Assembly (NCBI GenBank): GCA_964017195.1
Contig: OZ024892.1
Span: 8,041,866-8,105,865 of the forward strand
Direction: 5' to 3'
DNA length: 64,000 nucleotides
From: Siderastrea radians
Taxonomy: Eukaryota; Cnidaria; Anthozoa; Scleractinia; Rhizangiidae
The notes beneath the pieces were generated by a model. The model saw only the letters and a program-made list of their open reading frames with translations, searched no databases and was not told the origin of the DNA. Shown one piece after another: positions 25,596 through 42,326 of the stretch. The first letter of the stretch is position 1; each line of letters starts with the position of its first letter. Made by a program: the position numbers and the translations under genes.

Positions 25596-25898
25596 CTATT
25601 TAGGTTCCCTGCTAGCAGAGGCCCCTTTTCCTTTGTATTCGCTAAGCTGACGGACGGGACGAAAAGGGTCCTCTGCCATGGGTCGAAACTGTGTTGAGCA
25701 TGCGCCACGGTTACTTAGCGACCGAAACGTCACGTGATGCTTTTAGCACGTGATCACCTGACGACTCCCACCTTTCTCAACTAGCGCGCCAAAAAACACC
25801 TGCACAGTTTTGTTGTCGTGAATGGCGAGTTCACCAAAACCATAAAAGAAATAGACAGCTCGTCTAGAGATAGTTGTTGTCTAATCTACGGTATTAAG

Positions 25899-26168
25899 AG
25901 TAGTTATGAAAATGAGGGTATTGAGCCATTTTCTCAAATTTCAGTCAAATCTTCTGTTAAATTTTAGCAGAGAAATTTTTCCAGTCAAACAAAAATTCAC
26001 CACCAATTTTTCCAACACTTTTACCAAATTTGACTGAAAAAATTCCCAGTCAAATTTTTACCGTATTATACCCAAAAAATTTCACTATTTTCAAAACCAT
26101 ATGCATAACTTGTCACGCCATTTTCATGAATATATCTCTTATCGTCAAAGCAGCTGAGCGATATTTTA
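25899..26168 (+). repeat. Maverick left terminal inverted repeat
   Basis: 270 bp, reverse complement of 42051-42320 with about two mismatches (an A/G and a C/T near the inner end). It contains the stop codon and last 33 codons of the polymerase gene. Confidence 0.95.
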
Positions 26169-29100
26169 TCCACCACATAGCTACCAATTTGATGTTTTTC
26201 ACTTTTGATTAGTCTCATCTCGTGATGCATCTTCTTTTTATTAAAAAGTACGTCCTTGTACTTATCATGTCCTAACTGTTGTTTTATCACATTCTTTTTT
26301 ATTCCCTTTGCTGTGCAACTACCCTGTTCATTGTCTTTCATGTAAGAATACATTTTTGACCTCAAACCAACAAACTCCACAATTGGCATTCCCGCTGCTT
26401 CATCCTTGAATTTTCCAATGACTTTCTTGTTTGTGCTATCAAAAAATGGGCTATTCTTTGGATAATCACTGTTATCAAATAGATGTTTGTCTTTCCAAAA
26501 ATCTTGGTAAACATCATCTGCTTCAATTTCATACATTAAACTGTCAGTATCTGTGAACAGCAACCGAGCTTTGTCAACATACTTACTTTTGATGTAATTG
26601 TAATGAAAATCATACATTAATGTTTTTGACAAGTCTAGGATGCACATTCCAACATATGCCGGTCTGTTTAATGTTAAAGTTGTTTTGGTTTTATGAATGG
26701 CAACTAAATCCTCATTAAATATTTTACGGCTTATGAAACTCGGTTTGCTAGACCACTTTAATAGTTGTTCTTCATCAGTTACAAGTTTGACGTCCTGTCG
26801 CTTTCTCAGATTCTCCATCGTCTTTCCGAACACCGAATTGTTCATCAACTTGAAAAAATCTTTTTCAAAAGAGTTCTTTGCCTTTGCTCTCTTTTTTGTG
26901 TTAAAATCGATATAAGGTTTCAACCATGGACTCTGATTGAATTCGAGTGCTCTATGAATCTTCGTCAATTTCAACCCCAAAGACATATAGAGTTGCAAGT
27001 TGTGGTAATGCAAAACATATCTCTCTTTATTAAACAACGTTGGCACCAACTTTTCAACCAGTCCGATCTTTACTCCAAATTTTTCAGCAATTTCTCGACA
27101 ATAAGGTGACAACATACCTTCAGTTACTTTGATTTTTTCTGGTGCTAGCGGATAGTCGTTGTGGAGATCATGCAACTCCTCTGGATATTCCAAATCAACC
27201 TCCAATATCAATCCTTTTTCAGACTCATCATTATACTTGGATAAATTTACCTCTTCTTCCATCAACCATTTAAACCCACCTGTTGGAAGATGTTGACTCA
27301 TTGCCCAACCATATAAATTGTTTGCGTCCAAATACATAATGTATTTTGATACCTCCTCTGGATTATAGTTTTTCATATACTTGTTATTCGCTTTTCCATA
27401 TCTGTTGGCAATGTAACTGATTCCACCGCGCATACCTTTTTCAATGAATTGAAACATATCAACATCACTCATCAGCTCCAATTCAGTTTCTGTCGTTTTC
27501 AACATTGCGTCCCAACTCAAACCAGGTGTTGTGAAATAATGAGCAGGATCCAATTCATAGTATTGTTGGCATGCTTTGCGAAAATTTTCAAAAACATCGG
27601 TCAGCAATAAAATATCCGATTTGAGATATAGATCGTGATACTCCCCCATTGATGATAACCCAAATTTATTCCAAACATTCTGTGCATGTTGATACTCTTC
27701 ATCTGTGATATGTTTATTATTCATAATACTGAAGAAATCTTCTTTTTTCGGCAACTTGTCATCTTCAAACTTTTTGAAACTATCCATATAGTCATAAGGA
27801 TAGACACCTTTCTTTATCATTAATCTCAATTGCTCGCCTTCAAACTCTTTTGGGGTATATATTAAATTGTCATGATTTAGTTTCATACATGATTTAGAAC
27901 TATTTTTACAATTTATGCATTCACCACATGAAAAGCTTGTTTTATGTTGCATTACATGATCTTCACTATCAACAATTCGTTTTATACAATTACCAGGGTT
28001 ACACGTATTACATTTCCCACATTTGGTAATATTTTTAACAAGATTTTCCAAACTACTGCTCATAAATTGAAAGCTGTCAATGAACATAAGATGTGGACCC
28101 AACATAAAGGCCATGTATTTCTCCATGTTATGGGGAATGACATTTATTCTCATCTCATGTTCCCTTCCTTTTTCATCAACATATACATTCTTTTTCGCAA
28201 TATTACCAATCTCTTGCATTATAAAGTGACTGTCATATCCCTTGAGATTGTGAAACACCACAGGTATTTTATCGGTTAATTTAAAATTTAGATTACAACT
28301 TGCGTGTGCTGCGCCTCTGTATTTACCGGTGACATGACAGTGATCCCTTACTTTGACATTTTTTATTTTAATCTTTTTAATATTTCTTCCTCCAACATTT
28401 CTTACTCCATTCTCATTTTTACCAAAAGGTTTCTTGCAGATGTGGCATTCTTTAGCTCTTTGGAAACTTTCCTCATCCTCATCTGTCATTTCGAGAGGTT
28501 TTGTAAAGTGGTTTTCCACAACCTCTTTACAGTATTCAACTTCAGCCAACATGTCTTTCATAAACTTGTGAATGGTCATTTCTCCTCTGTAAATTTTGAT
28601 TGGTTTTGAAAATTTATCGTCATAACAGCAAACAACTTTATAACCATATCCACAAGCTGTATGTTTTTGATATTGCTCGGTGTTAGATTTTTTTTGTGAA
28701 ACTTTTTCGGTGATGGCTTCAAAATCAGCATAAATCACAAAAGGTGCTGGTAACTGTTTGCGATAATTTGTGAATGCAATTTTTGATCCAGGTTCTGGCA
28801 TTTTAATGGCTTGTTTCCCATTAATTATAACACAATCGACTGTATGATTATTTAATACCCTTTCAGAGCTAAAACATTGAAAACAGTACATACAGAAATG
28901 CTTTCTTCCCTTGTGCTTCGTTTGATTGTACATGAATTTATTAAAGTCCTTTAATAAACAATAATGTCCCACCTCTCCTTCGGTTATTAAGAGTAGATTC
29001 AAACAAGAGTTAAACTTTTCTTTTGAAACGTAAATTGGATACGGTTGATTTTCTTCATAACCGAAGACATTAACACGAATATTATTCTGTTTCTCTATTT

Positions 29101-30076
29101 TGTTGTATTGTTTTACAGAAACGGGGAACTCAATTCCTGAGTAATCCAATTTTTCCACATATTTTTTATCACACTTTTTTATTCTCTCTGGATGTTCATT
29201 CTGTGGCAAGAGGTGACGAATGTGGCACCAACGAAAACATTCATTGTCATTATTTTTCATGTTTATAATCCCTTTGGCTGGGTGCTGCAACTCTTTGGGT
29301 AATGGAATATATGAAAAACCTCTGAGTGGTCTGTACTTTATAACATTGATGAAATGACCATCAACTGATTTGATAGTCCATCCTGATCCTTTTGAAATCC
29401 ATTTCTGAATCTTATTTAGAATCTGTTGTTGTGTTATCTGCAACAATTCTGCAATCTCTGCGTCGTTTGTTACTGTTTGTTTTTCTGCATTCAAATAAGC
29501 GTTCTCTTCAATCAACTCATCTCCATTCTGTTTTTCAAACTTAATCTTCAACGTTTCATTGAATTTCAAGCCTTTCATTTCATTTAAAATCTTTAATAGA
29601 TTGTTCTTAATTACTGAACGGGTCTTCTGAAGTTGAATTAATGGGTCTTGTTTGTTTTTGAGACCAACTTCATATGATCTTGTATACCCTCGAAGGGCTT
29701 TTTCTTTCTGTTTGAAAGTTGGTTCAACTGATTTATAAATATTTTCCAACCACTTTTTCCATTTGATATTTTTTTTATTTTGCTCTTCAATGACTTTATC
29801 AGCATTTTCCAACCACTCTTCCCAATTAATTACGTTTTCAGTTGTTTTTTGAATCACATTTGGTAGCTTATTGAGTGTTGTTTTGACAACTGTTGGTTTG
29901 AGGATGGGGATGTTAATCTCAGGTACTTTACCAAATAAGCTAGGGTGTTGTCTTGGTGTTGGTATTGGTTTGGTATCATCTGCTATAATCTTCTCAAGCT
30001 TTCTTTTATTTTGGTCTCGAAGCATTTTAATAAACTGATTTGATCTACTAATTTTCTTCAAACTAGCTTTGTTCAT
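26066..30076 (-). CDS. polB: Protein-primed family B DNA polymerase
   Basis: 1336 residues, the Maverick replicative polymerase. Exonuclease motifs: ExoI YADFEA (Asp451/Glu453), ExoII NLKGYDSHF (Tyr614-Asp615) and ExoIII YLKSDILLL (Tyr817/Asp821). Polymerase motifs: A YLDANNLYG (Asp917), B KLMNNSVFGK (1076-1085), C FTDTDS (Asp1176/Asp1178) and KMY (1241-1243). Between the N-terminal region and ExoI there is a C2H2-like finger (Cys395, Cys398, His411, Cys415). Residues 544-594 hold an HNH/endonuclease VII-like cluster (CHICKKPFG ... DHCHVTGKYRGAAHASC). A Cys-rich patch spans 686-730. The N-terminal 350 residues are Lys-rich with no recognised domain; a terminal-protein function there is possible but unproven. 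The stop codon lies inside the left TIR. The upstream AATATTGCATTCAATAA motif is shared with the next gene. Confidence 0.95.
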   Translation of the reverse strand: MNKASLKKISRSNQFIKMLRDQNKRKLEKIIADDTKPIPTPRQHPSLFGKVPEINIPILKPTVVKTTLNKLPNVIQKTTENVINWEEWLENADKVIEEQNKKNIKWKKWLENIYKSVEPTFKQKEKALRGYTRSYEVGLKNKQDPLIQLQKTRSVIKNNLLKILNEMKGLKFNETLKIKFEKQNGDELIEENAYLNAEKQTVTNDAEIAELLQITQQQILNKIQKWISKGSGWTIKSVDGHFINVIKYRPLRGFSYIPLPKELQHPAKGIINMKNNDNECFRWCHIRHLLPQNEHPERIKKCDKKYVEKLDYSGIEFPVSVKQYNKIEKQNNIRVNVFGYEENQPYPIYVSKEKFNSCLNLLLITEGEVGHYCLLKDFNKFMYNQTKHKGRKHFCMYCFQCFSSERVLNNHTVDCVIINGKQAIKMPEPGSKIAFTNYRKQLPAPFVIYADFEAITEKVSQKKSNTEQYQKHTACGYGYKVVCCYDDKFSKPIKIYRGEMTIHKFMKDMLAEVEYCKEVVENHFTKPLEMTDEDEESFQRAKECHICKKPFGKNENGVRNVGGRNIKKIKIKNVKVRDHCHVTGKYRGAAHASCNLNFKLTDKIPVVFHNLKGYDSHFIMQEIGNIAKKNVYVDEKGREHEMRINVIPHNMEKYMAFMLGPHLMFIDSFQFMSSSLENLVKNITKCGKCNTCNPGNCIKRIVDSEDHVMQHKTSFSCGECINCKNSSKSCMKLNHDNLIYTPKEFEGEQLRLMIKKGVYPYDYMDSFKKFEDDKLPKKEDFFSIMNNKHITDEEYQHAQNVWNKFGLSSMGEYHDLYLKSDILLLTDVFENFRKACQQYYELDPAHYFTTPGLSWDAMLKTTETELELMSDVDMFQFIEKGMRGGISYIANRYGKANNKYMKNYNPEEVSKYIMYLDANNLYGWAMSQHLPTGGFKWLMEEEVNLSKYNDESEKGLILEVDLEYPEELHDLHNDYPLAPEKIKVTEGMLSPYCREIAEKFGVKIGLVEKLVPTLFNKERYVLHYHNLQLYMSLGLKLTKIHRALEFNQSPWLKPYIDFNTKKRAKAKNSFEKDFFKLMNNSVFGKTMENLRKRQDVKLVTDEEQLLKWSSKPSFISRKIFNEDLVAIHKTKTTLTLNRPAYVGMCILDLSKTLMYDFHYNYIKSKYVDKARLLFTDTDSLMYEIEADDVYQDFWKDKHLFDNSDYPKNSPFFDSTNKKVIGKFKDEAAGMPIVEFVGLRSKMYSYMKDNEQGSCTAKGIKKNVIKQQLGHDKYKDVLFNKKKMHHEMRLIKSEKHQIGSYVVDKISLSCFDDKRYIHENGVTSYAYGFENSEIFWV

Positions 30077-30080
30077 TTCT

Positions 30081-30104
30081 TATTTATTGAATGCAATATT
30101 TTTT
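30081..30104 (-). promoter_or_regulatory. Upstream motif of polB (AATATTGCATTnAATAA)
   Basis: Read on the minus strand, AAATATTGCATTCAATAAAT stands just before the polB ATG. The NUMOD1-like gene has AAATATTGCATTAAATAAAA at the same place (30461-30484). No capsid gene carries it, so it may mark an early class of genes. Confidence 0.45.
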
Positions 30105-30145
30105 AAACTATTTTTTCATTTCGTAAAACGTGAAATGAAAAAAGT

Positions 30146-30457
30146 TCAAGCAAAAGACAATCTGACTTTATTTCCATCCTTATCCACAAATGCATTTCCA
30201 CAATTTGCGAAATACTGAATCGAACCATGCTTTTTTCCCAACACTTTTGCACACTGATAAATGCTTTTACATTTTGTAACAACCTGTGTATCAACATTAG
30301 TAATCAGCACCTCCTTTGCGTTACTTGGTCTGTTATACAATTCTTCATCAAGATTTAATACTTTTCCCAGTTCTGCTTTTGAGAGCTTTTCAGCATTTTT
30401 TATTTTTTTACTCACAGCCATTCTACGCATTTCTTGATAAGTTAAAAATTTTGTCAT
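30146..30457 (-). CDS. NUMOD1-like DNA-binding protein
   Basis: 103 residues. The C-terminal half (about 48-100: KEVLITNVDTQVVTKCKSI ... YQCAKVLGKKHGSIQ) follows the NUMOD1/IENR1 layout, a beta-strand then a helix-turn-helix found in homing endonucleases and some viral regulators. The N-terminal 45 residues are Lys-rich and helical. No nuclease motif is present, so a DNA-binding or regulatory role is the inference. It lies between integrase and polB on the same strand, 48 bp after the integrase stop, and shares the polB-type upstream motif. Confidence 0.65.
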   Translation of the reverse strand: MTKFLTYQEMRRMAVSKKIKNAEKLSKAELGKVLNLDEELYNRPSNAKEVLITNVDTQVVTKCKSIYQCAKVLGKKHGSIQYFANCGNAFVDKDGNKVRLSFA

Positions 30458-30505
30458 TTTATTTTTATTTAATGCAATATTTTTTTAAATTTTTTAAATT
30501 TATTT

Positions 30506-31459
30506 TCACATCAGATCGTTAATATCTACCCATGAATTAAATTTTTCTGGGTAACCGCTCCACTTTACCAAAGCTTTACCTTTTCGAGCGTCTCGTCGAA
30601 TTACTTTCTCAATACGGTAAACGTCTTGAACAGCCTTTTGCATCTCCTGTTCATAAAAAGAACCTGATATCTCCTCACCACTGAGATCTTTGAGTCTGTA
30701 AGTGATCGGATTGGTGTATTGTATCTTGTCAACTGTAAAAACTTCTTCTGTCCAATTGGCTGTGTATCCTTTGTCAAAAACAGGACGTTTGTACTTAGAT
30801 ATTCTAACCTTATCACCAACTTTGAACTTTGACTTTGTTGAAATTGGCTTCATATCACCGAAAAGGTTAAAGTAAACAACTCCTTCATTTTTCTTTTTGC
30901 TTGCTTCTGTAGGTGTCATCTTTGTGCTTGAATGTCTGGTATTGTTATACTCTTTCACTAATTTAGGTAACATTTCAAGATACTGTGTATTCCCCTGAAC
31001 AGTAAACTGCTTCCACATATTAGTTTTGATTGTACGGTTCCATCTTTCACAAACTGACGACTTTTCCTCATTCTCAGTTGAGTACAAGGTTATTTCATTC
31101 TTATCAAGTAGTTCCTTAACATGTTTGTTGTAATACTCTTTTCCTTTATCTGTCCAAAGATATTGTGGTTTACGCCCCTCTTTGAATATTGTTTTGAATG
31201 CTTGAGCAACAGTTTCACCCTTTTTATCCTTCAATGGGACAATCCAACCATATTTACTAAACACATCGAGTACCATGAGAAGATATCTGTAACCCTTATT
31301 CCATCGACTGAATTTTTGCATCTCAACGATATCTGAACACCATATCCCGTCAATATGGTTTACAATTACCCGCCGCCGGGTGAAGTTGCGCTTTATCGGT
31401 TTATGAAGCTCATCAGCTAATTTTTCTTGCCAGTTTTCTTCACTCGACGGCCTTTTCAG
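30506..31459 (-). CDS. Retrovirus-like integrase with chromodomain (-1 frame ORF)
   Basis: 317 codons are open from the frameshift site (31459) to the stop at 30506-30508. The rve catalytic triad is Asp43 (CSDIVEM, codon 31331-31333), Asp104 (WTDKGKEYY) and Glu138 (CERWNRT), with 33 residues between the last two as in other Polinton integrases. A chromodomain (YRIEKVIRRDARKGK ... VKWSGYP ... SWV) occupies the last 40 residues and may guide targeting to marked chromatin. The first ATG in this frame is at 31321, four codons after the first catalytic Asp, so a protein starting there would lack a metal-binding residue. The frame overlaps the end of the phospholipase ORF, whose stop is immediately preceded by a slippery heptamer. 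Production as a -1 frameshift fusion is therefore inferred. It inserts element DNA with the 6-bp duplication seen at the ends. Confidence 0.92.
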   Translation of the reverse strand: MKRPSSEENWQEKLADELHKPIKRNFTRRRVIVNHIDGIWCSDIVEMQKFSRWNKGYRYLLMVLDVFSKYGWIVPLKDKKGETVAQAFKTIFKEGRKPQYLWTDKGKEYYNKHVKELLDKNEITLYSTENEEKSSVCERWNRTIKTNMWKQFTVQGNTQYLEMLPKLVKEYNNTRHSSTKMTPTEASKKKNEGVVYFNLFGDMKPISTKSKFKVGDKVRISKYKRPVFDKGYTANWTEEVFTVDKIQYTNPITYRLKDLSGEEISGSFYEQEMQKAVQDVYRIEKVIRRDARKGKALVKWSGYPEKFNSWVDINDLM

Positions 31460-31465
31460 TTTAAA
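31372..31465 (-). promoter_or_regulatory. Predicted -1 programmed ribosomal frameshift signal (PLA2 to integrase)
   Basis: On the minus strand the zero-frame codons GGT TTA AAC TGA contain the canonical heptamer T TTA AAC (31459-31465), with the stop right after it. A 7-nt spacer (31452-31458) leads to GCCGTCGAGTGAAG (31438-31451). This pairs with CTTCACCCGGCGGC (31372-31385): 14 positions, one A-C mismatch and one G-U, around a 52-nt loop that holds a small AGCT-AGCT hairpin. After a -1 slip the reading frame is the integrase frame, open for 317 codons. Not tested experimentally here. Confidence 0.8.
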
Positions 31466-32148
31466 CCAAGACCAAGTTTTTCCTTTGTGTTAATAATATT
31501 TCGCGCCATCCAATGACCCCATTGTCTCTCATTATAAGGAACAGAATCCAACGCTTTGACCATTTTCCTGTCGGCTTTATTCTTACATTTTTTATCATCT
31601 TTGCAAACTGAATAATCAACGTCATGTTGCATGGCTATAGCATCGGTATTACCAGTTGGTTTGTCATATATCTCTAGTATCTCTCCTGTTTTTGGATCCC
31701 ATTTAACCTGATTTTCAAGATCGTTGTAGGGGCCTGTGTATTTATGCCCTGGAAGAGTCCAACCCCCCTTTGGTTTAGGGAGTTTTCCAATGGCTTTATG
31801 AATGTCAATCCCAGCTCCGTCAAGTTCTTTTCTATCGGTTTTATATTTTTTATTGGGTCGTATCTTTGTTGATAGTTGATCAAGCATTTCCGATCCTGTT
31901 TTTTGAACAAAGGGAGCCGCTCTTTCCAAAGCATAATCGAGAGCCTTTTTCTGCAGTTTTGGGTTCCTTAGTGCTTCACTACTGTAATATCTTCCCATTT
32001 CAACTGCTTTTTTTCCAAGCCAAGGAATACCATGATGAATTAACATATCAGCCCCTGTGGATGCCATCGTATCCAAAATGCCCGCCCCTTCAGACGGGCT
32101 AATTAGTTTCCCGTTTGTTTCACGAATCTTGTTTTTTTTATTCCACAT
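31456..32148 (-). CDS. Parvovirus-type phospholipase A2 domain protein
   Basis: 230 residues. The PLA2 core lies in the C-terminal half. A Ca-loop-like YTGPYNDLE (138-145; the parvoviral form is YxGPGN) is followed by the catalytic pair QHDVDY (His175-Asp176) and a supporting Asp193 in NKADRKMV. In parvoviruses this enzyme breaches endosomal membranes, and similar domains occur in some adintoviruses. The N-terminal 100 residues contain a short Gly/Ala-rich hydrophobic part and amphipathic helices. An in-frame stop directly before Met1 fixes the start. The start overlaps the small Cys-rich gene by 46 bp, and the end overlaps the integrase frame at the frameshift signal, so about 230-aa and about 547-aa products are predicted. 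The loop change GPG to GPY is unusual and could affect calcium binding. Confidence 0.85.
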   Translation of the reverse strand: MWNKKNKIRETNGKLISPSEGAGILDTMASTGADMLIHHGIPWLGKKAVEMGRYYSSEALRNPKLQKKALDYALERAAPFVQKTGSEMLDQLSTKIRPNKKYKTDRKELDGAGIDIHKAIGKLPKPKGGWTLPGHKYTGPYNDLENQVKWDPKTGEILEIYDKPTGNTDAIAMQHDVDYSVCKDDKKCKNKADRKMVKALDSVPYNERQWGHWMARNIINTKEKLGLGLN

Positions 32149-32255
32149 TCAGCACATGTGCAAAAGAACATTAGTCGACCGTTTTTTGCATATTTATATC
32201 CTGAGGGTTCTACGCACTCAGTTTCTTTTCTTTGTTTTACGCAATACGTTTTCAT
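32103..32255 (-). CDS. Small Cys-rich (zinc-ribbon-like) protein
   Basis: A 50-codon frame starts MKTYCVK, has a CTCAECG cluster in the second half and ends RFVKQTGN. The pattern (YCVK-x ... Arg-Leu-Met ... C-x-C-x2-C-G-x-K-K-x-R-F-V) resembles the short DUF5679-type zinc-ribbon proteins of Polintons, although the second Cys of the first knuckle is Gln here. The start codon abuts the stop of the preceding protease gene, and the end overlaps the phospholipase start in another frame. Its first seven codons were copied onto the front of the upstream protease (see 32256-32732), which supports this as a real gene. Confidence 0.6.
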   Translation of the reverse strand: MKTYCVKQRKETECVEPSGYKYAKNGRLMFFCTCAECGIKKTRFVKQTGN

Positions 32256-32732
32256 TTACAATATAGCAGGATTTTTAAAATATTTTTCCATAAATTTTTC
32301 ATTTTTCATCATATCATGAAGATCAAAGGGTTTTAAAAGGTCTAAATATTTATTACCCTTATTCATTTCATTCAAAAAGTATAAACAAAAATATCCACAA
32401 GTGGTGGTACCCAAATCTTGTATCTGATTACTTAGGTAAATCACATTGAGTTTATTTTTTCTTGCATAATTGAAGATTTCTTTAAAAGGGGGCAACCCAA
32501 AACTATCGAAATAATTAATCACTCCATCCTTTACAAATGTTGCAACCCAATGAATTCCACTAATATATGACGGCTCGAGATTGTATATGAAAAACGCCAT
32601 TTTATGATTATGTGGGACAGTTTGATTCCTTGAAAACACTCCACCCATATCAATTGGAATTCCTAGATATTCACACCATTCAATCAAATCAAAATTACTA
32701 ATTGGAACATTTTTTACGCAATACGTTTTCAT
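32256..32732 (-). CDS. Adenain-like cysteine protease, copy 2 (hybrid N-terminus)
   Basis: 158 residues, adenovirus-protease (C5/Ulp1-like) family. Catalytic residues are His61 (HWVATFV), Asp76 (YFDSFGLP), Gln103 and Cys112 (TTTCGYFC). It should mature capsid proteins in the particle. It is a tandem paralogue of the gene immediately upstream, matching through most of its length. The first seven residues MKTYCVK do not belong to the protease. They are identical to the start of the next gene (32255), and the nucleotide match covers the start codon and the preceding stop context. The duplication therefore carried the beginning of that neighbour and fused it to the second protease. All catalytic residues are intact. 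Confidence 0.9.
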   Translation of the reverse strand: MKTYCVKNVPISNFDLIEWCEYLGIPIDMGGVFSRNQTVPHNHKMAFFIYNLEPSYISGIHWVATFVKDGVINYFDSFGLPPFKEIFNYARKNKLNVIYLSNQIQDLGTTTCGYFCLYFLNEMNKGNKYLDLLKPFDLHDMMKNEKFMEKYFKNPAIL

Positions 32733-33203
32733 TTACAATATAGCGAGATTTTTAAAATATTTTTCTATGAATTTCTCATTTTTCATGGTATCATGTACAT
32801 CAAAGACTTGCAAAAGGTTGAAATACGATGAACCTTTGTTCATCTCATTCAAAAAGTATAAACAAAAATATCCGCAAGTGGTCGTGCCCAAATCTTGTAT
32901 CTGGTTATTTTGATGAAACAGAGTGAGATTCTTTTTCTCTGCATGATTCACAATTTCTTGAAATGGTGGCAACCCAAAACTGTCGAAATAATTGATTCTA
33001 CCATCCTTTACAAATGTTGAAACCCAATGGCTTCCACCCATGTATGATGGTTCAAGATTATAAATGAATAGCGCCATTTTGTGGCTATGTGGAACAGTTT
33101 GATCTCTTGATAAAACACCCCCTTTGTCAATTGGAATTCCTAAATGTTGACACCATTCTATCAAATCAAAATTACTCATTGGAATTCTTTTGTGGAATTT
33201 CAA
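32733..33203 (-). CDS. Adenain-like cysteine protease, copy 1
   Basis: 156 residues, with His59, Asp74, Gln101 and Cys110 (TTTCGYFC) in the adenain order. The start MKFHKRIPMSNFDLIEW overlaps the last few bases of the upstream 271-codon gene by 4 bp. The stop abuts the start of protease copy 2. Adenain-type proteases cleave (M/I/L)xGx|G or (M/I/L)xGG|x. Such sites occur in the neighbouring 271-aa protein and in the small basic protein, making those its likely substrates. Confidence 0.9.
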   Translation of the reverse strand: MKFHKRIPMSNFDLIEWCQHLGIPIDKGGVLSRDQTVPHSHKMALFIYNLEPSYMGGSHWVSTFVKDGRINYFDSFGLPPFQEIVNHAEKKNLTLFHQNNQIQDLGTTTCGYFCLYFLNEMNKGSSYFNLLQVFDVHDTMKNEKFIEKYFKNLAIL

Positions 33204-34015
33204 AGTATGGTTCCCAATAATGGAATCCCATTGAACGGACTGTTTTTTCCAAGGAGCAATCCTTCCCCGATTTTTTTTTTTTTTTTCTTATTTCCTTTAC
33301 CCATTTGTTCCCATGTTCCATAAAATGGGGGTGGTGGTTGGTATCTTCCCATTCTCGGAGCGGCTCCACCCGACAAAGGAGTGGGGGCTTTTCCAATTCT
33401 TGGAACTCCTGAACCACCCACCATCTTTTTGAAAGCTTCAAGAGCGAGTGGAACACCAATTGAGGCAAGAAGTGTACCAAGAAAACCACCACTTTGTTTT
33501 TGTGTTGGTTTTATATGAACACCGGAACCAGTTTGCAAGGCATTGAGAATATCTTTTTTCTGTTTTTCACTCAAGAGATGTTTATTTTCGATGAGTTTAT
33601 TTATTTTAGAATTTGGAATGAGGAAACCACCTGTCTGTAAACCTTTTCCAGATATCTTTTTTACAATTTGAGATGCTCCTTCGGAAGCAGCTCCCGCAAG
33701 AGCTGATAACCCCACTGTTTTTGCTAATGTTGGTCCAAAAGTTCGAGCGAGTGATAATATTGAAGTTAAAAGTGAACCACCCACTTGTTTTCGAATGTTG
33801 GTTTTAGCCAGTTTTATTTCCATTCCTTTTCTATCAGTACGATTTTTTTCCAACCTTTTTACAACAGTTGAAGGAACTAAAAGAGTATCATTTCCAATGA
33901 GGGCGTCACTTTTCAACCTCAGCTTGATTGTTTCACGTTCGTGATAAGCTTTACTGAGTTTCTTTTTCTGAGAATCTGAAAGTTTAACATTTATTTCATA
34001 TAATTGTGTAGACAT
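33200..34015 (-). CDS. Virion core/membrane-active protein (pX/pVI-like), precursor
   Basis: 271 residues in three parts. An N-terminal module (1-75: EINVKLSDSQKKKLSKAY ... GNDTLLVPS) is shared with the next gene upstream. A hydrophobic, Gly/Ala-rich segment follows (79-118), which could insert in membranes. The tail is Gly/Pro-rich with a Lys run (NKKKKKK) and ends GIPLLGTIL. Three adenain consensus sites are visible: ISGK|G (121-125), MVGG|S (198-202) and LSGG|A (214-218). Polintons and adintoviruses usually carry such a protein near the major capsid gene; the comparison with adenoviral pX/pVI is by character, not strong sequence identity. The upstream TTTCGTTAAATAAAAT motif is shared with other structural genes. 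Confidence 0.7.
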   Translation of the reverse strand: MSTQLYEINVKLSDSQKKKLSKAYHERETIKLRLKSDALIGNDTLLVPSTVVKRLEKNRTDRKGMEIKLAKTNIRKQVGGSLLTSILSLARTFGPTLAKTVGLSALAGAASEGASQIVKKISGKGLQTGGFLIPNSKINKLIENKHLLSEKQKKDILNALQTGSGVHIKPTQKQSGGFLGTLLASIGVPLALEAFKKMVGGSGVPRIGKAPTPLSGGAAPRMGRYQPPPPFYGTWEQMGKGNKKKKKKIGEGLLLGKNSPFNGIPLLGTIL

Positions 34016-34065
34016 TTTATTTTATTTAACGAAATAAAATAAAATAAATTCATGAATTTTTTGAA
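34016..34065 (-). promoter_or_regulatory. Upstream motif of structural genes (TTTCGTTAAATAAAAT)
   Basis: Minus-strand ATTTCGTTAAATAAAATAAA lies directly before the ATG at 34015. Variants precede the genes starting at 34416 (ATTTCGTTAAAATAAAAT), 37922 (CTTTCGATTAAATAAAATG) and 36922 (TTCCGTTTAAATAAATG). The polymerase-side genes lack it, so a late-promoter or leader role is plausible. Confidence 0.45.
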
Positions 34066-34416
34066 TTAATGGCAGTTGGCACCACATTCCATAAGTTTTT
34101 CTATATTCCGTGCAACAGAATTTTCCGTTGAGTCATTTATTAATGAATAATCCATTACAATTTTCATTCCTTTCTCTTCCTTTCGTTTAGTTTCCAAATA
34201 ATCAACAACCGTAAACATGGAAATTTCTCTTCCATCATAGGGGTGAATAAATTTCGACGGCATTTTGATTGAAGGAACAAGAAGAGTATCACTTCCTCTG
34301 AGGGCATCATTATTAAACCACAGAAAGATTGATTCACGGTTTATAAAAGCATTACGAATTTTTTCTTTCTGATATCTTGAAAGCGTTACATTTATTTCAT
34401 GTAGTTCAGATTTCAT
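34066..34416 (-). CDS. Paralogue of the core-protein N-terminal module
   Basis: 116 residues. The sequence HEINVTLSRYQKEKIRNAF ... GSDTLLVPS aligns with the first 50 residues of the adjacent 271-aa protein, then has a roughly 25-residue insertion (IKMPSKFIHPYDGRE...). It ends without the hydrophobic or basic parts. It arose by tandem duplication, as also indicated by near-identical upstream sequence (GAATTTATTTTATTTCGTTA). Its role is unknown; it may partner with, or compete with, the full-length protein. Confidence 0.7.
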   Translation of the reverse strand: MKSELHEINVTLSRYQKEKIRNAFINRESIFLWFNNDALRGSDTLLVPSIKMPSKFIHPYDGREISMFTVVDYLETKRKEEKGMKIVMDYSLINDSTENSVARNIEKLMECGANCH

Positions 34417-34462
34417 TTATTTTATTTTAACGAAATAAAATAAATTCACGATTTTTTTTGAA

Positions 34463-35752
34463 TCAAGCAATCATGAGCTCATTTCCAACCTTGTCGACAA
34501 TGAGCTCATCTTCGTAAAATACAATAGCATGAGCTATCACATCAGCTGCTGGTGCTAGATTCAATTTGTATTTTATAAACAGTTTTTTAGGATCTCGAGT
34601 AGGAGCCTCTTTTTGGTAGGTTAAATTGAAATAAACAAGACCGTAAATAGATGAAAAATTATGTGGATTCAGCTGCGTTCCTGTCTTCATATCATAGTCT
34701 CTAAAAGCATAAGACATTAGATCGCCAAAAATAACCATTTTTGAATCAACATCATACTCTATTTCAGGATAAAAAGTATTTGATCCATACTCCAAACGGC
34801 ATGAAGCAAGAGAGCTGTTGTTATCACCTGCATTCAGCTTAAAAGTATCAAAAATATAAGGAGTTCTTTCAGATTCATCATTGTTGGGACCATTATTTCT
34901 CTGTAGATAAAAAAATACGTGCTTTACATTATCAATAGATGGACTAATTCGAAACTCGTTTTGAACTATCCTTGTTTCAGCACTTTGAACATACATATCT
35001 TGCATGTACGTCCATTTGACTGGTTTTAGAAAATCTTTCACATATTCACCATATTCACTATCTTTTGGAACCATTTTTGGAACCCAAAGATAAAATTTCT
35101 TTAAAACCACCCGCCCAGGGTCTGTGCCATTTGCCATGTGAATCAATTCATTATCTTCATTTAAATCAATTTCGAACTCGAGTTGCATGGGAGGGAGCAT
35201 TTTATCTTCCAATTCCTCAAAGAAACTATATCTATTCAATGGAATGATCTCATTTATGCTTTTAGCACCACCCCCTCCATTATTCTGGTTTGCTTGAGTT
35301 AAAATTCGCCTTGCTTCAAAACCTAAATTCGTGTTTGCTGTTGAATTTTCCGTGTCAAGATACCAAAAACTTTTTTTCGCCACTGACCTAGTAAAATTAT
35401 CACTATACTCCAACAAATTTTTAACATTTGTAATTCTATGAAGGTTGTCACTAACATATACTACTTTACCAGCTGATTTGATGGTCATGCGCTTAATGAG
35501 GGAATGTGACCCATTAATTATCGTAATTCGATCGGCAGCCGCATAACCAGATCCATCAGCTTTCTTTTGAAGCTCAAAAGTCACTTCAAAATATCCTTTG
35601 AAAAAATCAAAAAAAATAGATCTATCGGTTATTGTGAATTTATATGATGTTTTTTTCTGAGAGCTGTTGTTTCCAGGTTGTTCAATTAAATTATTAGGGG
35701 AGAATCTAACCCTTTCATATCTTTGCAGTTTATCACTTGTTCTGAAACTCAT
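34463..35752 (-). CDS. Major capsid protein (double jelly-roll, hexon-like)
   Basis: 429 residues. The sequence follows the Polinton/adintovirus MCP pattern: an N-terminal strand region (KFTITDRSIFFDFFKGYFEV), central VFFYLQRNNG, PYIFDTFKLN, RLEYGSNTFYPEIEYD, the conserved RDYDMKTGTQLNPHNF ... YGLVYFNLTY stretch, and a C-terminal HAIVFYEDELIVDKVGNEL. It would form the trimeric capsomers of an icosahedral shell. The frame is full length for the family. It lies between the small basic protein and the core-protein pair, and a different upstream sequence (TTTTAAACATATAATAAAAG) precedes its ATG. Confidence 0.9.
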   Translation of the reverse strand: MSFRTSDKLQRYERVRFSPNNLIEQPGNNSSQKKTSYKFTITDRSIFFDFFKGYFEVTFELQKKADGSGYAAADRITIINGSHSLIKRMTIKSAGKVVYVSDNLHRITNVKNLLEYSDNFTRSVAKKSFWYLDTENSTANTNLGFEARRILTQANQNNGGGGAKSINEIIPLNRYSFFEELEDKMLPPMQLEFEIDLNEDNELIHMANGTDPGRVVLKKFYLWVPKMVPKDSEYGEYVKDFLKPVKWTYMQDMYVQSAETRIVQNEFRISPSIDNVKHVFFYLQRNNGPNNDESERTPYIFDTFKLNAGDNNSSLASCRLEYGSNTFYPEIEYDVDSKMVIFGDLMSYAFRDYDMKTGTQLNPHNFSSIYGLVYFNLTYQKEAPTRDPKKLFIKYKLNLAPAADVIAHAIVFYEDELIVDKVGNELMIA

Positions 35753-35766
35753 CTTTTATTATATGT

Positions 35767-36153
35767 TTAAAACTTTTTTATTTTTTGTTTTTTTTTATAA
35801 CCCTCTCCAGAAATCATTCTATTCAACAAAACGTTGTAATCTTCTTCTTTTTGGGGATTAGATTCTTTCTGAAGGTCTTTAATTAAAAGATGACCTGATT
35901 TTTGAACAACTTTTTTACCCAGTTTATCACCAGCTTTTTTAGCAACCGATTCCACAATTTTTTTACCCAGTTTATCACCAGCACTTTCTATTCCAGATTT
36001 CAAAGCTTTTTTAGCAACCGGTTTCAAAACTGATTCCACAATTTTTTTCATTGGTTTGAAAATATTATCGACAATTAAACCTGATCCTCTATGTTTAAAA
36101 ACAAATTTTCCAAAACTCGGATGATAAATTTCTCTGTATTCATTCAACTTCAT
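35767..36153 (-). CDS. Small basic virion protein (pVI/pX-like)
   Basis: 128 residues, strongly basic. After GSGLIVDNIFKPMKK comes a predicted amphipathic helical region with an internal repeat of about 20 residues (SAGDKLGKKIVESVAKK / KAGDKLGKKVVQKS). Near the C-terminus ISGE|G (114-118) fits the adenain cleavage rule. The gene sits between penton and major capsid genes, where Polintons place a minor virion protein. DNA condensation or membrane disruption, as for adenoviral pX or pVI, is inferred. Confidence 0.65.
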   Translation of the reverse strand: MKLNEYREIYHPSFGKFVFKHRGSGLIVDNIFKPMKKIVESVLKPVAKKALKSGIESAGDKLGKKIVESVAKKAGDKLGKKVVQKSGHLLIKDLQKESNPQKEEDYNVLLNRMISGEGYKKKQKIKKF

Positions 36154-36169
36154 TTATAATTATCTTTTT

Positions 36170-36922
36170 TTATTTTTTCTCTCTCAAAATCAGAGCAAAT
36201 GATGTATCAGCGTTGTTTAAATCAATAATTCGTCTTTTTCCATCAGTAATGTATATCCGTATTGTGTCAATTAAATACTTATTCACTGGATAAAATCGGA
36301 CTCTTAAAGGATCTTTAGTAAAAGTATAAGAAGGGACTAAATTATTTGTTCCGAATGTGTAAATAATATCCGTTTCATGTTCATCAACAAGACTCCCTGA
36401 AATAAGATCACAATGTATGTTCAAAATCTCTCTATCTTGACTGAGATTTGGCATGTATTCACCATCACTTGAACTGGTTAAAATTTGTTTGTTAAAACCA
36501 ATTAGATCTCCAAAATTCGATGACCTCAAGTCCATTTGATAGTTTGTTGTTAAAGTTATTCTTGTTCTTAAAGTTATTTCATTAAATTTTAATGTAATAG
36601 GATATATAGCTGAGTTGGAAGTTGTTATTTTTGTTTGTTCCTTAAAATAATCATTCAAACCAGTATAATTCCATATACCCGGTGGAAAGATTAAATCTTT
36701 CCAAGTTTTTCCGCCATCTGAAGAGTATTTTATTTTTTGGTTATTCAAATCCGATGTGATATTAGACCATGTGAAAGACATGGATATAATCTCACTTAAA
36801 CCAAGTTCATACTGTTTGTTTTTATCAAGTTTTAGTGCTTGATTGTATCTAATTGTGAAATCACTCGGTTTGTTTTTTTTGTCTTTCTTACTTACGTTGT
36901 GAGAAGATAAAATTATGTCCAT
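36170..36922 (-). CDS. Penton (minor capsid, single jelly-roll) protein
   Basis: 250 residues. It contains the conserved SDFTIRYNQALKLDKNKQYE ... SMSFTWSNI N-terminal block, a KIKYSSDGGKTWKDLIFPPG segment and FGDLIGF in the middle, which together are typical of Polinton penton homologues. The protein would occupy the fivefold vertices and is the expected anchor for a fibre. It is adjacent to the 331-aa gene, with 4 bp between them. Confidence 0.88.
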   Translation of the reverse strand: MDIILSSHNVSKKDKKNKPSDFTIRYNQALKLDKNKQYELGLSEIISMSFTWSNITSDLNNQKIKYSSDGGKTWKDLIFPPGIWNYTGLNDYFKEQTKITTSNSAIYPITLKFNEITLRTRITLTTNYQMDLRSSNFGDLIGFNKQILTSSSDGEYMPNLSQDREILNIHCDLISGSLVDEHETDIIYTFGTNNLVPSYTFTKDPLRVRFYPVNKYLIDTIRIYITDGKRRIIDLNNADTSFALILREKK

Positions 36923-36926
36923 TTAT

Positions 36927-37922
36927 TTAAACGGAAAAAAAGTTTTTGTAAATTTTGTTGTATTTATCTTTGCTAATTATGTGATTTTTCAACAAAATAT
37001 CGAGAATGGCAACACCAGTGTTTCTGAGTTCAATGCTATTGTTTCCAGCATCAATTGAAGCAACAATTAATCCCAATTTTTTAACAGCTTCTTGGGGATT
37101 GATGAAAACGGCAGCCGCATTTCCACCTCGTTTTGTTTTCTTTCCTTTGAGACCGGAACCTTTGAAAATCTTCAACTTATTTTTGTTAAAATTAATATAA
37201 TCATTGAGAACTTTTCGTGCGTCGTCGATAATCTTTCTTCTGTATTGTGCCTCAGATGAGCTTATCAAACCTTTATTCAACTGCTTGGTAATTTGTGTTT
37301 TGTACCCTGGAAGTTGTTGTCTTTTTTTGACTGCATTTTCTATTTTCTTTGATAAGAAAGAACGTCTTGTTTTTTCTGTCATATCTTCTCTTTTGAGTTG
37401 TGCTTCAATGTCATCATAGTTGGTCAATCCAAGTTGATCTAAAGTCTCGTTTATTCTATCTTCTTCCAAAATCTCATAATCTGGAACTTCATCTTCTTCA
37501 TATTCTGGTGGGTCTTCAAGTTCTAGCATATACTCAGGATTGACATATATTTTCTTTTCCCCCGTTTCCAAATCTTTAAGAACATCATCATAAGAGGGGG
37601 GTTTTGGAACAAGTTGTTTAGTATTTTCTGGTAAAACTTGATCACCAAATAGATCTTCCAATTCATAATCAGGCACTTCATCATCAATAGCTATTCCATA
37701 ATCGGGAACCTCTAGTTTTTTCCTTTGCAACCGTTTTTTAATAGGTTGAGGTTTTGCTAACTCTTTTAAACCGGATGTTATAGGTTTGAAAAGCTTCTCT
37801 GCTTCAACATTACTCATCATATCAGTTATTTTCTTTTGTTCTATCGTTTCCCTGATATTATTAACAACTTGACCTGTTTTCAATCTTTTCGCAGCCATTT
37901 CTTTCCACTTTAAGAGACTCAT
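36927..37922 (-). CDS. Acidic virion protein with PPxY motifs
   Basis: 331 residues, the first gene of the leftward late block. The middle is acidic and holds PPSY (108-111) and PPEY (138-141), each next to acidic residues. It also has three VPDY repeats (72-75, 83-86, 146-149). PPxY motifs bind WW domains of NEDD4-type ubiquitin ligases, and adenovirus protein VI uses a PPSY motif during entry. The C-terminal 100 residues are basic then hydrophobic/helical (GSGLKGKKTKRGG ... ISKDKYNKIYKN), a tail common in Polinton structural proteins. The exact role is unproven. Confidence 0.7.
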   Translation of the reverse strand: MSLLKWKEMAAKRLKTGQVVNNIRETIEQKKITDMMSNVEAEKLFKPITSGLKELAKPQPIKKRLQRKKLEVPDYGIAIDDEVPDYELEDLFGDQVLPENTKQLVPKPPSYDDVLKDLETGEKKIYVNPEYMLELEDPPEYEEDEVPDYEILEEDRINETLDQLGLTNYDDIEAQLKREDMTEKTRRSFLSKKIENAVKKRQQLPGYKTQITKQLNKGLISSSEAQYRRKIIDDARKVLNDYINFNKNKLKIFKGSGLKGKKTKRGGNAAAVFINPQEAVKKLGLIVASIDAGNNSIELRNTGVAILDILLKNHIISKDKYNKIYKNFFSV

Positions 37923-37981
37923 TTTATTTAATCGAAAGGAAAAATATTTTTTTCATTTCAGTTGAACAGAATAAAGCTCGC

Positions 37982-38029
37982 ATAGCGTGTTGCATAGCGT
38001 GCCGAATAGCGTGTTGCATAGCGTGCCGC
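37982..38029. repeat. 12-bp repeats in the divergent promoter region
   Basis: Four copies of ATAGCGTGYYGM (two near-identical 24-bp units) lie in the gap between the leftward late block and the rightward ATPase gene. They happen to be open and extend the ATPase frame upstream. They may be binding sites for a regulator of both directions. Confidence 0.6.
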
Positions 38030-38049
38030 ATAAAATTATTGAAAAAATT

Positions 38050-38712
38050 ATGTTGAGAATTAATAAAATGAAACTGCTAAACTATGACGTTGAAGGTGAT
38101 GAAGACAGTAATTTCACTCAGTTGTATCCTTTCATGCCTGATAGATGCTTCAGAATGTTGATCTGCGCTCCGAGTGGGAGTGGTAAAACTAATCTTTTAC
38201 TTAACATGATAAACAAACCCCTATTATTTTTTGATAAGATTTATCTATATGCTAAAAACTTACAGCAAAACAAGTATCAATATTTGTTGAAAAAATTTGA
38301 ACCTCTTTCGAAAAAATATGGTTATAATATCATTGAAGCTAGCAATGGTGAGATAATTCCTTTAGATAACATGGATGGCGGAAACCAAAAGTTAATCATT
38401 TTCGATGATTACCTGAACACCGGAACCAAAAATGATCAAGAAATACGAAACTATTTCACAAACTCTAGAAATAAAAATTTCAGCTGTATCTATCTGTCTC
38501 AGTCTTTTTACAATACAGACAAAACCATCAGATTGAACTGCTCCCATCATTGCATTTTCGATTTTCCAAGCAAGAATGAACATAGTAGGATATGCCAAGA
38601 ATTGAACATCAACAAAGACGACTACCTCTCAGCAACAAAAGAACCATATACTTTTCTATATCTTGATAAGCCACGAAAATTCAAAGCAAAAAATTTTAAT
38701 GAAAAAATCTGA
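38050..38712 (+). CDS. DNA-packaging ATPase (A32/FtsK-like)
   Basis: 220 residues from the ATG at 38050. An in-frame ATG at 37987 lies inside the 12-bp repeats and is less likely, because the family normally begins just before the LLNYDVEGDEDSNFT-type segment. Walker A is APSGSGKTN, Walker B is LIIFDDY, and the following CIYLSQS is the usual sensor region. The enzyme pumps element DNA into capsids. It is transcribed divergently from the late block and is followed 11 bp later by the fibre-like gene. Confidence 0.92.
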   Translation: MLRINKMKLLNYDVEGDEDSNFTQLYPFMPDRCFRMLICAPSGSGKTNLLLNMINKPLLFFDKIYLYAKNLQQNKYQYLLKKFEPLSKKYGYNIIEASNGEIIPLDNMDGGNQKLIIFDDYLNTGTKNDQEIRNYFTNSRNKNFSCIYLSQSFYNTDKTIRLNCSHHCIFDFPSKNEHSRICQELNINKDDYLSATKEPYTFLYLDKPRKFKAKNFNEKI

Positions 38713-38723
38713 ATAGTTAATAA

Positions 38724-40403: not shown

Positions 40404-40587
40404 ATATTTTTTCATTTATTATATATCACAATGTGGAACATATCAACCAAACACTTCAAAGCTGACCGATGTTTCGGCATCGTTTACAGGATGAGAACAG
40501 CTATTTTAATTGATTAAAAACATCAGAACATTATACTCCAATATTAAAGTGTCATTCGAAAAGAAAAAATGTGGTCATATAATATAA

Positions 40588-41079
40588 ATGGATAGACGTG
40601 AAAGCATATTCAATTGGAACCATGTTTCAGAAAAATTAACGGAAGATCAAATATTTGAGTTGAAAGCATTGTACAAATTCTACCATAAGAAATACTGGCT
40701 TGCTAAAATGACTTACAAATATTACAAAAAGGCAGAACTTGCATGTAATATTGGATCCGCTTTATTGGTAGTTACGGGGACAGTAGTTGGCGGTGTTACG
40801 CTAAACCCTGTTGTTCTCGGAACAATATCTGGTTCTGGTTTATTGCTTAAAACATATTCAGAAATCAAAAATTATAAAAGGAAGATTGAGATGTGTAAAT
40901 TTGCATACACTTCATATGAAAAGGTTTTAACTGATTTACGGTCCTTTATGAGAGGGGTGAAGTATGATGAAAAAGAATTCCTTGATTATGTTAAAGTTAT
41001 AGATGACATAATCATTGATATGTGTCCATTAACTGACAAATTTGAAAAGAAATACAACAAGGTATTCATCCAAGAATAG
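40588..41079 (+). CDS. Two-hydrophobic-segment membrane protein of Mavericks
   Basis: 163 residues. An N-terminal charged helix (ELKALYKFYHKKYWLAK) leads to two close hydrophobic stretches (about 54-70 IGSALLVVTGTVVGGVT and 71-86 LNPVVLGTISGSGLLL). A helical soluble tail with SEIKNYKRKIEMCKFAYTSYEKVL follows. The layout recalls 2TM proteins such as the SLATT group, but that is only a topology match. Membrane modification or a holin-like role is speculative. CATATAATATAAATG precedes the start. Confidence 0.6.
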   Translation: MDRRESIFNWNHVSEKLTEDQIFELKALYKFYHKKYWLAKMTYKYYKKAELACNIGSALLVVTGTVVGGVTLNPVVLGTISGSGLLLKTYSEIKNYKRKIEMCKFAYTSYEKVLTDLRSFMRGVKYDEKEFLDYVKVIDDIIIDMCPLTDKFEKKYNKVFIQE

Positions 41080-41101
41080 ATCTCATTTTTCCGTTCACTG
41101 T

Positions 41102-41360
41102 AAACTTTGTCGGCAAAGTTTACTTCAAAATACATGACCCATCGGGAAAGAACCGTCCAACACGTTAGACAGACAATTGAAAAACTTTGTCGACAAAGTT
41201 TACTTCAAAACAAAAGAACTGTCTAACATGTTAGACAGACAATTGAAAAACTTCAAATACAAGTTCATCTAATATTGCATGACAATTTGATGACTCATTT
41301 CCTCGGGAAAGTCCCTGTGGTTTTCAAAACAAAAGAACTTTCTAACACGTTAGACAGACA
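41102..41360. promoter_or_regulatory. Cluster of palindromic direct repeats near the right end
   Basis: AAACTTTGTCGACAAAGTTT (41182-41201) is a perfect 20-bp palindrome, with a one-base variant at 41102-41121. GTCTAACATGTTAGAC (41221-41236) is a perfect 16-bp palindrome, with variants at 41155-41170 and about 41340-41355. Each of the three is followed by AGACAATTGAAA. The region has no gene and separates two convergent ones. Confidence 0.7.
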
Positions 41361-41410
41361 ATTGAAATGGCTTGAATATATAAGTTTCATTATAGGCAAA
41401 ATAATGAAAC

Positions 41411-42028: not shown

Positions 42029-42050
42029 TTTTCATTATTTCTTATTTCTT

Positions 42051-42320: not shown

Positions 42321-42326
42321 ATTAAG

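What the first reader, a model, noticed from the sequence alone, without database searches (positions are those of the whole stretch)
31372..31465. Canonical -1 ribosomal frameshift signal fusing phospholipase A2 to integrase in a Maverick
Seen: heptamer T TTA AAC in the correct phase, a zero-frame TGA straight after it, a 7-nt spacer, then a 14-position stem (one mismatch, one G-U) with a 52-nt loop. Seen: the -1 frame is open through the whole integrase. Known: U UUA AAC with a structure 5-9 nt downstream is the strongest class of -1 signal (coronavirus type). Inference: the element makes a 230-aa PLA2 protein and a PLA2-integrase fusion of about 547 aa. That would set the integrase ratio and could place integrase in the particle, much as retroviruses do with Gag-Pol. 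I know of no description of this in Polintons or adintoviruses.
Basis: partly seen in the sequence, partly recalled or inferred. Interest (0 to 1): 0.95.

Follow-up and report, generated by a model that had tools for sequence, protein, structure and literature searches.

The report
Double frameshift relay in a Maverick
A virus-like mobile element in an animal genome (likely a coral's) holds two conserved "slip back one base" signals joining three of its genes, so its ribosomes are predicted to make a zinc-ribbon protein, a phospholipase and the DNA-inserting integrase as one chain, a layout that retroviruses use and that my paper searches did not turn up for such DNA elements.

Summary
The signal is as described: T TTA AAC in phase, TGA directly after, 7-nt spacer, 14-position stem, integrase open in the -1 frame without a usable ATG before the first Asp. 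The element is complete (16.4 kb, identical 6-bp target duplications). In the window's own genome 120 of 126 close copies keep the -1 arrangement (4 fused in frame, 1 +1, 1 not settled). In 142 scripted -1 copies of two subfamilies a slippery heptamer sits exactly 7 nt before the stem: T TTA AAC in 113 of 116, A AAA AAC in 26 of 26; 58 of 59 departures from the commonest base pair still pair. In some other records PLA2 and integrase are fused in one open frame. Beyond the finding, a second signal lies upstream (32112-32080): G GGA AAC, TAA, 6-nt spacer, 8-bp hairpin, joining a DUF5679 zinc ribbon to PLA2; 49 of 52 readable -1 copies keep its heptamer. The element thus appears to use two successive -1 frameshifts (zinc ribbon > PLA2 > integrase), like retroviral gag-pro-pol. 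Shifting itself is untested: no RNA, reporter or peptide data. Ten paper searches found frameshift predictions for other adintovirus genes only.

The parts
25899..42320 (.). complete Maverick/Polinton element; identical 6-bp target duplications ATTAAG at 25893-25898 and 42321-42326; terminal inverted repeats about 270 bp, 98.9% identical
32103..32255 (-). zinc-ribbon ORF (DUF5679), 50 aa, first frame of the relay
   Evidence: PF18930 E 9.6e-06, 26.1 bits, just under its cut-off of 27; the same domain leads the fused proteins P0007 and P0045
32106..32112 (-). site 1 slippery heptamer G GGA AAC, in phase
32103..32105 (-). site 1 zero-frame stop TAA; first half of the 6-nt spacer 32105-32100
32080..32099 (-). 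site 1 hairpin: 8 bp (32099-32092 with 32087-32080), loop GAAG
   Evidence: fold -17 kcal/mol for 50 nt, z -2.7, 2 of 200 shuffles; synonymous null z -5.3, 1 of 3000
31456..32148 (-). phospholipase A2 ORF, 230 aa from its ATG; -1 relative to the zinc ribbon
   Evidence: PF08398 E 8.8e-11
31459..31465 (-). site 2 slippery heptamer T TTA AAC, in phase
31456..31458 (-). site 2 zero-frame stop TGA; first part of the 7-nt spacer 31458-31452
31438..31451 (-). site 2 stem, 5' arm
31372..31385 (-). site 2 stem, 3' arm, made largely of CGG codons (CGG is 5 of 155 Arg codons in the other ORF stretches counted)
30506..31459 (-). integrase in the -1 frame relative to PLA2 (rve core plus chromodomain), 317 codons after the shift
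   Evidence: PF00665 E 1.7e-12, PF00385 E 1.4e-06

Best explanation
In this Maverick the zinc-ribbon, phospholipase A2 and integrase genes lie in three successive -1 frames, and each frame change carries an in-phase slippery heptamer with a zero-frame stop directly after it and a stem 6-7 nt downstream, so ribosomes are predicted to slip back one base at each and would make zinc ribbon-PLA2 and zinc ribbon-PLA2-integrase chains. Shown: the anatomy, its conservation in two subfamilies of the same genome, and natural in-frame fusions of the same domains in the same order. Inferred: that shifting occurs, its rate, and that most ribosomes stop after the zinc ribbon or PLA2 while a minority make the integrase. 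Speculative: that PLA2 (recalled as a membrane-active virion protein in other viruses) carries the integrase into the particle, as Gag does for Pol in retroviruses.
For: Own genome, site 2: of 126 close copies 120 are in the -1 relation (116, 4 more), 4 fused, 1 +1, 1 (L096) not settled though it has the heptamer; of 30 copies read out of 126 of a second subfamily 28 are -1 and 2 fused. In the 142 -1 copies scripted for both arms the heptamer ends exactly 7 nt before the 5' arm: 113 TTTAAAC, 2 AAAAAAC, 1 TTTAAAA of 116; 26 AAAAAAC of 26. Stem: 58 of 59 cells departing from the commonest pair still pair; third codon positions that cannot change synonymously without breaking a pair changed in 1 of 710 cells, those that can in 44 of 710. 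Site 1: 60 copies examined, 53 readable: 52 are -1, 1 fused; GGGAAAC in 49 of the 52, hairpin of 7-8 bp at 5-6 nt in 48 of those 49. Other records: 22 of 120 listed hits carry PLA2 and rve domains together (domain order); 110 of 121 PLA2 tails fit T TTA AAY or A AAA AAY. Of 152 proteins tried, 16 could be read in two frames with a PLA2 tail; 10 of these reach at least 9 codons into the PLA2 side, and 8 of the 10 force a canonical in-phase heptamer; the +1 relation gave 0 and one residue shuffle 0. The two tail types swap on the PLA2 tree (10 changes for the T type, at least 6 forced by well-supported branches; bootstrap not settled).
Against: No RNA, ribosome-profiling, reporter or peptide evidence. 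P0062 and P0085 imply C TTA AAY, not canonical. Short two-frame matches are weak: with a lower minimum length, fused proteins match -1 tails too, because they share the integrase side. In 28 of 116 and 15 of 26 copies an integrase-frame ATG precedes the first Asp; in 1 of 116 and 4 of 26 it lies close to the integrase core (13 and 6 codons before it) and could start a nearly full integrase. PLA2 has its own ATG above site 1 in 46 of 46 copies checked. At site 1, 3 of 30 close copies lack a canonical heptamer. A AAA AAC can also follow from Lys-Lys-Arg codons that fused relatives share. The site 2 stem is only moderately better than shuffles, and six third positions in the loop next to the 5' arm are as invariant as the arms (0 of 630 cells in S1). 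As distinct kinds, pair-keeping changes are 7 of 8, which alone is modest. Copies are related, so counts are not independent events.
Confidence: 0.86

Rival explanations
1. Integrase (and PLA2) are started separately at internal ATG or near-cognate codons; the -1 overlaps are incidental.
For: PLA2 has an ATG above site 1 in 46 of 46 copies; 28 of 116 S1 and 15 of 26 S2 copies have an integrase-frame ATG before the first Asp, 5 of these 43 close to the core.
Against: 88 of 116 and 11 of 26 copies, the window included, have none usable; the window's ATG at 31522 runs into TAA at 31492; the codon after the heptamer is CTG here but CGT or CGG in the three S2 copies printed, so no near-cognate start is shared. 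It does not explain why heptamer, spacer and stem are kept.
Confidence: 0.07
2. A spliced transcript joins the frames.
For: Some deposited Stylophora gene models (P0103, P0106) join PLA2 and integrase pieces in ways that look like predicted introns.
Against: Of the 11 AG listed between 130 nt upstream and 95 nt downstream of the integrase anchor in the window, none has more than 60% pyrimidines in the preceding 20 nt; vertebrate Mavericks are reported without introns (PMC8097293, passage); conserved slippery sites would be unexplained.
Confidence: 0.03
3. The element is a decayed fusion gene and the frame changes are damage.
For: In-frame fusions exist in other records and in 4 of 126 close copies.
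Against: Complete element with identical target duplications and open ORFs; 120 of 126 copies share the -1 relation while 1 is +1; only 1 of 126 and 3 of 126 scored integrases have an internal stop; the 4 fusions among close copies show one and the same junction that lacks the stop and the 5' arm, as a deletion between two AAACTG repeats would give.
Confidence: 0.02
4. RNA polymerase, not the ribosome, slips at the A runs, giving mixed mRNAs.
For: A AAA AAC in the second subfamily contains a run of six A.
Against: T TTA AAC and G GGA AAC hold only runs of three; a stem 6-7 nt downstream is typical of ribosomal frameshifting (spacer 5-9 nt, PMC7618472, passage).
Confidence: 0.02

Closest known systems
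Retroviral gag-pro-pol double -1 frameshifting (MMTV, MPMV, HTLV-1; recalled)
   Same: Two successive -1 sites in one mRNA, heptamers of the same kinds, structure a few nt downstream, integrase at the end of the longest chain (recalled).
   Different: A DNA element; the leading domains are a zinc ribbon and a phospholipase, not Gag and protease; the three relay ORFs contain no reverse transcriptase.
Coronavirus ORF1a/1b signal (U UUA AAC; recalled)
   Same: Same heptamer, similar spacer.
   Different: Here a stem with a 52-nt loop; no convincing pseudoknot found.
Predicted -1 frameshifts in adintovirus Penton and Hexon-Adenain (PMC11071296; passages read)
   Same: Same virus group, -1 shift proposed by a prediction program.
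   Different: Other genes; the passages seen name neither PLA2 nor integrase and call the shift hypothetical.
Maverick/Polinton and adintovirus integrases, e.g. Stylophora coral adintovirus (P0092)
   Same: A named relative, 73% identical integrase.
   Different: Deposited as a separate 355-aa integrase; I saw only its name and sequence, not its record.

Membership tests
-1 programmed ribosomal frameshift signal | in-phase X XXY YYZ heptamer in the overlap of two frames | tested here: met
   site 2; site 1:
-1 programmed ribosomal frameshift signal | structure 5-9 nt downstream (range from PMC7618472, passage) | tested here: met
   7 nt and 6 nt; predicted folds
-1 programmed ribosomal frameshift signal | conservation beyond coding need | tested here: met
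   copies are related, so support is partly non-independent, and part of the loop is as invariant as the arms
-1 programmed ribosomal frameshift signal | measured shifting above background | not testable with these tools
   needs a reporter or ribosome profiling
Retrovirus-like double-frameshift polyprotein | two successive -1 sites feeding one chain | tested here: inconclusive
   anatomy met; but PLA2 also has its own ATG and no chain was seen
[quoted passage not shown]
Maverick/Polinton (adintovirus) element | rve integrase with C-terminal chromodomain | tested here: met
Maverick/Polinton (adintovirus) element | packaging ATPase | tested here: met
   Pox_A32 E 1.9e-10
Maverick/Polinton (adintovirus) element | protein-primed DNA polymerase B, jelly-roll capsid protein, adenain protease | tested here: inconclusive
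   no relevant Pfam or PDB match for the 1336-aa and 429-aa ORFs; adenain-like match below cut-off; names rest on recalled motifs and gene order

The most novel reading that the evidence does not exclude
Animal Mavericks of this group have converged on the retroviral Gag-Pro-Pol plan: two successive -1 frameshifts append first a phospholipase and then a retrovirus-type integrase to a leading structural domain, setting a fixed integrase dose and carrying the integrase into the virus particle.
Probability: 0.5. Interest if true: 0.95.

Novelty: new variant of a known kind. Interest (0 to 1): 0.9.

Why it matters
[quoted passage not shown] Two stacked signals ending in an integrase, in an element with at least 126 scored close copies in this one genome, would be a striking convergence with retroviruses, would explain why integrase ORFs of these elements often lack a start codon, and would make a question testable: how the integrase of a Maverick is dosed and whether it travels in a particle. 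It also means that gene predictions for such elements can be truncated or falsely spliced.

Tried and rejected
Viral and bacterial contig collections held no close relative: none; one distant integrase (L001, 38%); the DNA pattern gave 22 loci, none with a relative by tblastn at E 1e-3 (two PLA2 matches near E 0.9). The pattern gave nothing in the window. Rfam found nothing. A structure model of the integrase was poor (mean pLDDT 53) and is not used. A pseudoknot between the loop and downstream sequence was looked for; the best was 6 pairs with one G-C. The heptamer count printed at the end mixed strands (the stem arms are each other's complement) and is not used; one search is. Several haplotype rows took a wrong downstream GGGAAA; one search replaces them. 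A first tree with other labels is not used for counts. My first view that the zinc-ribbon/PLA2 junction had no conserved heptamer (note) was wrong and rested on one guessed sequence; searches corrected it. Considered and rejected: near-cognate start at CTG, decay, +1 relation.

Full report
What was checked. The described signal is present exactly as stated. On the minus strand, PLA2 ends GGT TTA AAC TGA; the seven-base spacer TGAAAAG is followed by a 14-position stem (31451-31438 with 31385-31372) with one A.C mismatch and one U.G pair around a 52-nt loop. The integrase is open in the -1 frame. Without a shift, the first ATG gives a 271-aa ORF that lacks the first Asp of the core: its rve match starts at profile position 19, against 5 for the -1 reading.

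The element. It is complete: inverted repeats of about 270 bp at 98.9% identity, the same ends AGTAGTTATG on both sides, and an identical ATTAAG duplication, 25899-42320. PLA2 (PF08398), integrase (rve plus chromodomain) and the packaging ATPase (Pox_A32) are supported by Pfam; the polymerase, capsid and protease names rest on recalled motifs because no library matched them above cut-off. A named relative is the integrase of Stylophora coral adintovirus, 73% identical.

Is the stem more than chance? Against dinucleotide shuffles the fold is only moderately good (11 of 200). But the integrase codons that make it are unusual for this element: three CGG in a row, where CGG is 5 of the 155 Arg codons counted elsewhere. 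Resampling synonymous codons by the element's usage, 3 of 3000 fold as well and none makes a 13-pair stem at the right spacing; with G+C matched, 125 and 8 of 3000.

Relatives as proteins. Three searches gave 272 proteins; the first two were capped at 120 listed of 7343 and 2156. In one search, 22 of the 120 carry both PLA2 and rve domains; P0007 (550 aa) has DUF5679, PLA2, rve and chromodomain in one open frame. Where an integrase ORF runs upstream in its own frame it can be matched to a PLA2 tail only if one DNA can encode both. Of 152 proteins tried, 16 matched over 14-38 codons in the -1 relation; the +1 relation and one residue shuffle gave none. In 14 of 16 the implied DNA holds an in-phase canonical heptamer; P0062 and P0085 imply C TTA AAY. 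Six of the 16 hardly reach the PLA2 side, and with a lower minimum length fused proteins match as well, so I rely on the 10 that reach at least 9 codons into PLA2: 8 of 10 force T TTA AAY or A AAA AAC. The paired pieces come from different records. Of 121 PLA2 tails (window included) 110 are compatible with one of the two heptamers (40 and 70), 3 end or begin LK, 5 fit none and 3 could not be read. On a tree of 106 tails the two types swap repeatedly (10 changes for one type, at least 6 forced by well-supported branches; bootstrap not settled); these labels show compatibility, not DNA.

Relatives as DNA in the same genome. The tool scored 126 copies for the window's integrase, of 2934 candidates, and 126 for P0016, a second subfamily, of 2884; the two lists were not checked for overlap. 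I read the junction in all 126 of the first (S1) and in the 30 of 126 of the second (S2) that were given as loci. S1: 116 are -1 by the first script and 4 more by a second with wider anchors, 4 fused, 1 +1 (L176), 1 (L096) not settled though it shows the heptamer. S2: 26 plus 2 are -1, 2 fused. Among the 142 -1 copies scripted for both arms the heptamer lies exactly 7 nt before the 5' arm in all: 113 TTTAAAC, 2 AAAAAAC and 1 TTTAAAA in S1; 26 of 26 AAAAAAC in S2. So both frames' amino acids differ between subfamilies while slipperiness and spacing stay. In the 105 S1 copies that line up without gaps (11 of 116 dropped by the filter), the heptamer departs from the window in 1 of 735 cells, the TGA in 10 of 315, against 441 of 6300 in the 60 nt upstream and 162 of 5460 in the loop.

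Stem conservation. Of 59 cells that depart from the commonest pair, 58 still pair, including U.G to C-G, U.G to U-A, and the A.C mismatch turned into A-U or G-C. As distinct kinds this is 7 of 8, which alone is modest. Third codon positions in the arms that cannot change synonymously without breaking a pair changed in 1 of 710 cells; those that can, in 44 of 710; ten loop third positions in 86 of 1420. That loop count leaves out one highly variable site and the six loop third positions next to the 5' arm, which are invariant in S1 (0 of 630 cells), so invariance is not confined to the arms. The copies share descent, so these are not independent events.

Alternatives to shifting at site 2. No integrase-frame ATG precedes the first Asp in 88 of 116 S1 and 11 of 26 S2 copies. 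In 27 of the 28 other S1 and 11 of the 15 other S2 copies the ATG is 33-40 codons upstream of the integrase anchor, in the PLA2 region; in 1 S1 and 4 S2 copies it is 13 or 6 codons upstream and could start a nearly full integrase. In the window the upstream ATG (31522) runs into TAA at 31492. The AG dinucleotides near the junction lack strong pyrimidine tracts, and intact vertebrate Mavericks are reported intronless (PMC8097293, passage). The 4 fused S1 copies share one junction that lacks the stop and the 5' arm, as a deletion between two AAACTG repeats would give; fused S2 copy L063 keeps the heptamer and spacing.

A second signal, not in the finding. Upstream lies a 50-aa DUF5679 zinc-ribbon ORF (32255-32103, just under cut-off), a domain that fused relatives carry at the start of the same chain. 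It ends ACG GGA AAC TAA: heptamer G GGA AAC (32112-32106) in phase, stop directly after, spacer of 6 nt, then the hairpin GCCCGUCU-GAAG-GGGCGGGC (32099-32080). Fifty nt fold at -17 kcal/mol, 2 of 200 shuffles as good, and in synonymous resampling 1 of 3000 (z -5.3). PLA2 is the -1 frame. Of 60 copies examined, 53 could be read: 52 are -1 and 1 fused (7 lacked an anchor); 49 of the 52 have GGGAAAC and 48 of those 49 a 7-8 bp hairpin at 5-6 nt. The three without are S1 copies L027, L031 and L047. The stop is immediate in S1 (27 of 27) and 30 nt downstream in S2 (22 of 22). Among other records, 40 of 44 proteins picked as starting in this -1 reading have Gly-Lys followed by Leu (27) or Arg (13), as GGG AAA C would give; of the 4 others P0157, P0209 and P0260 are not proper cases and P0229 is a true exception. 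PLA2 also has its own ATG above this site in 46 of 46 copies checked, so site 1 may not be the only source of PLA2.

Reading. The simplest mechanism is a relay: zinc ribbon alone, zinc ribbon-PLA2 after one shift, zinc ribbon-PLA2-integrase after two, plus whatever starts at the PLA2 ATG. In fused lineages the same order is hard-wired. The layout equals retroviral gag-pro-pol with two -1 sites (recalled), with integrase last. That PLA2 would bring integrase into a particle is a guess from the recalled role of PLA2 in other viruses.

Literature. Ten searches, read as listings, with passages from PMC11071296, PMC12721341, PMC8310308, PMC11071308, PMC7618472, PMC12220804 and PMC8097293, showed no report of frameshifting at a Polinton integrase or PLA2. 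The nearest is a prediction for adintovirus Penton and Hexon-Adenain (PMC11071296). Other listed papers that hold both words (such as PMC11089739 and PMC12567637) were not opened. Subscription papers and, as I recall it, the founding adintovirus paper (not held) were not seen, so absence from print is not shown.

Noticed in passing
32080-32148, minus strand: Second -1 frameshift signal (G GGA AAC, TAA, 6-nt spacer, 8-bp hairpin) between the zinc-ribbon and PLA2 frames; not in the finding, now part of the main explanation.
   Followed up: yes
32235-33184: Two adjacent copies, 83% identical, of a small ORF with a weak adenain-like match: a tandem duplication inside the element.
   Followed up: no
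L114, L118, L127, L128: Four own-genome copies fused in frame at one and the same junction, without stop and 5' arm but keeping TTTAAAC.
   Followed up: partly
L001 (JAAXJP010000107.1): A contig binned as the bacterium Rubrivirga encodes a Polinton-type integrase (38% identical); perhaps a mis-binned eukaryotic or viral contig.
   Followed up: no
G000: 2934 and 2884 first-look candidate places for two integrase queries in one 805-Mb genome; only 1 of 126 and 3 of 126 scored places have an internal stop: apparently very high copy number.
   Followed up: no
1708-5025 with 47020-50276, and other pairs: Long repeats of 77-92% identity lie on both sides of the element, direct and inverted; perhaps a local duplication of the host region.
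   Followed up: no
   Followed up: no
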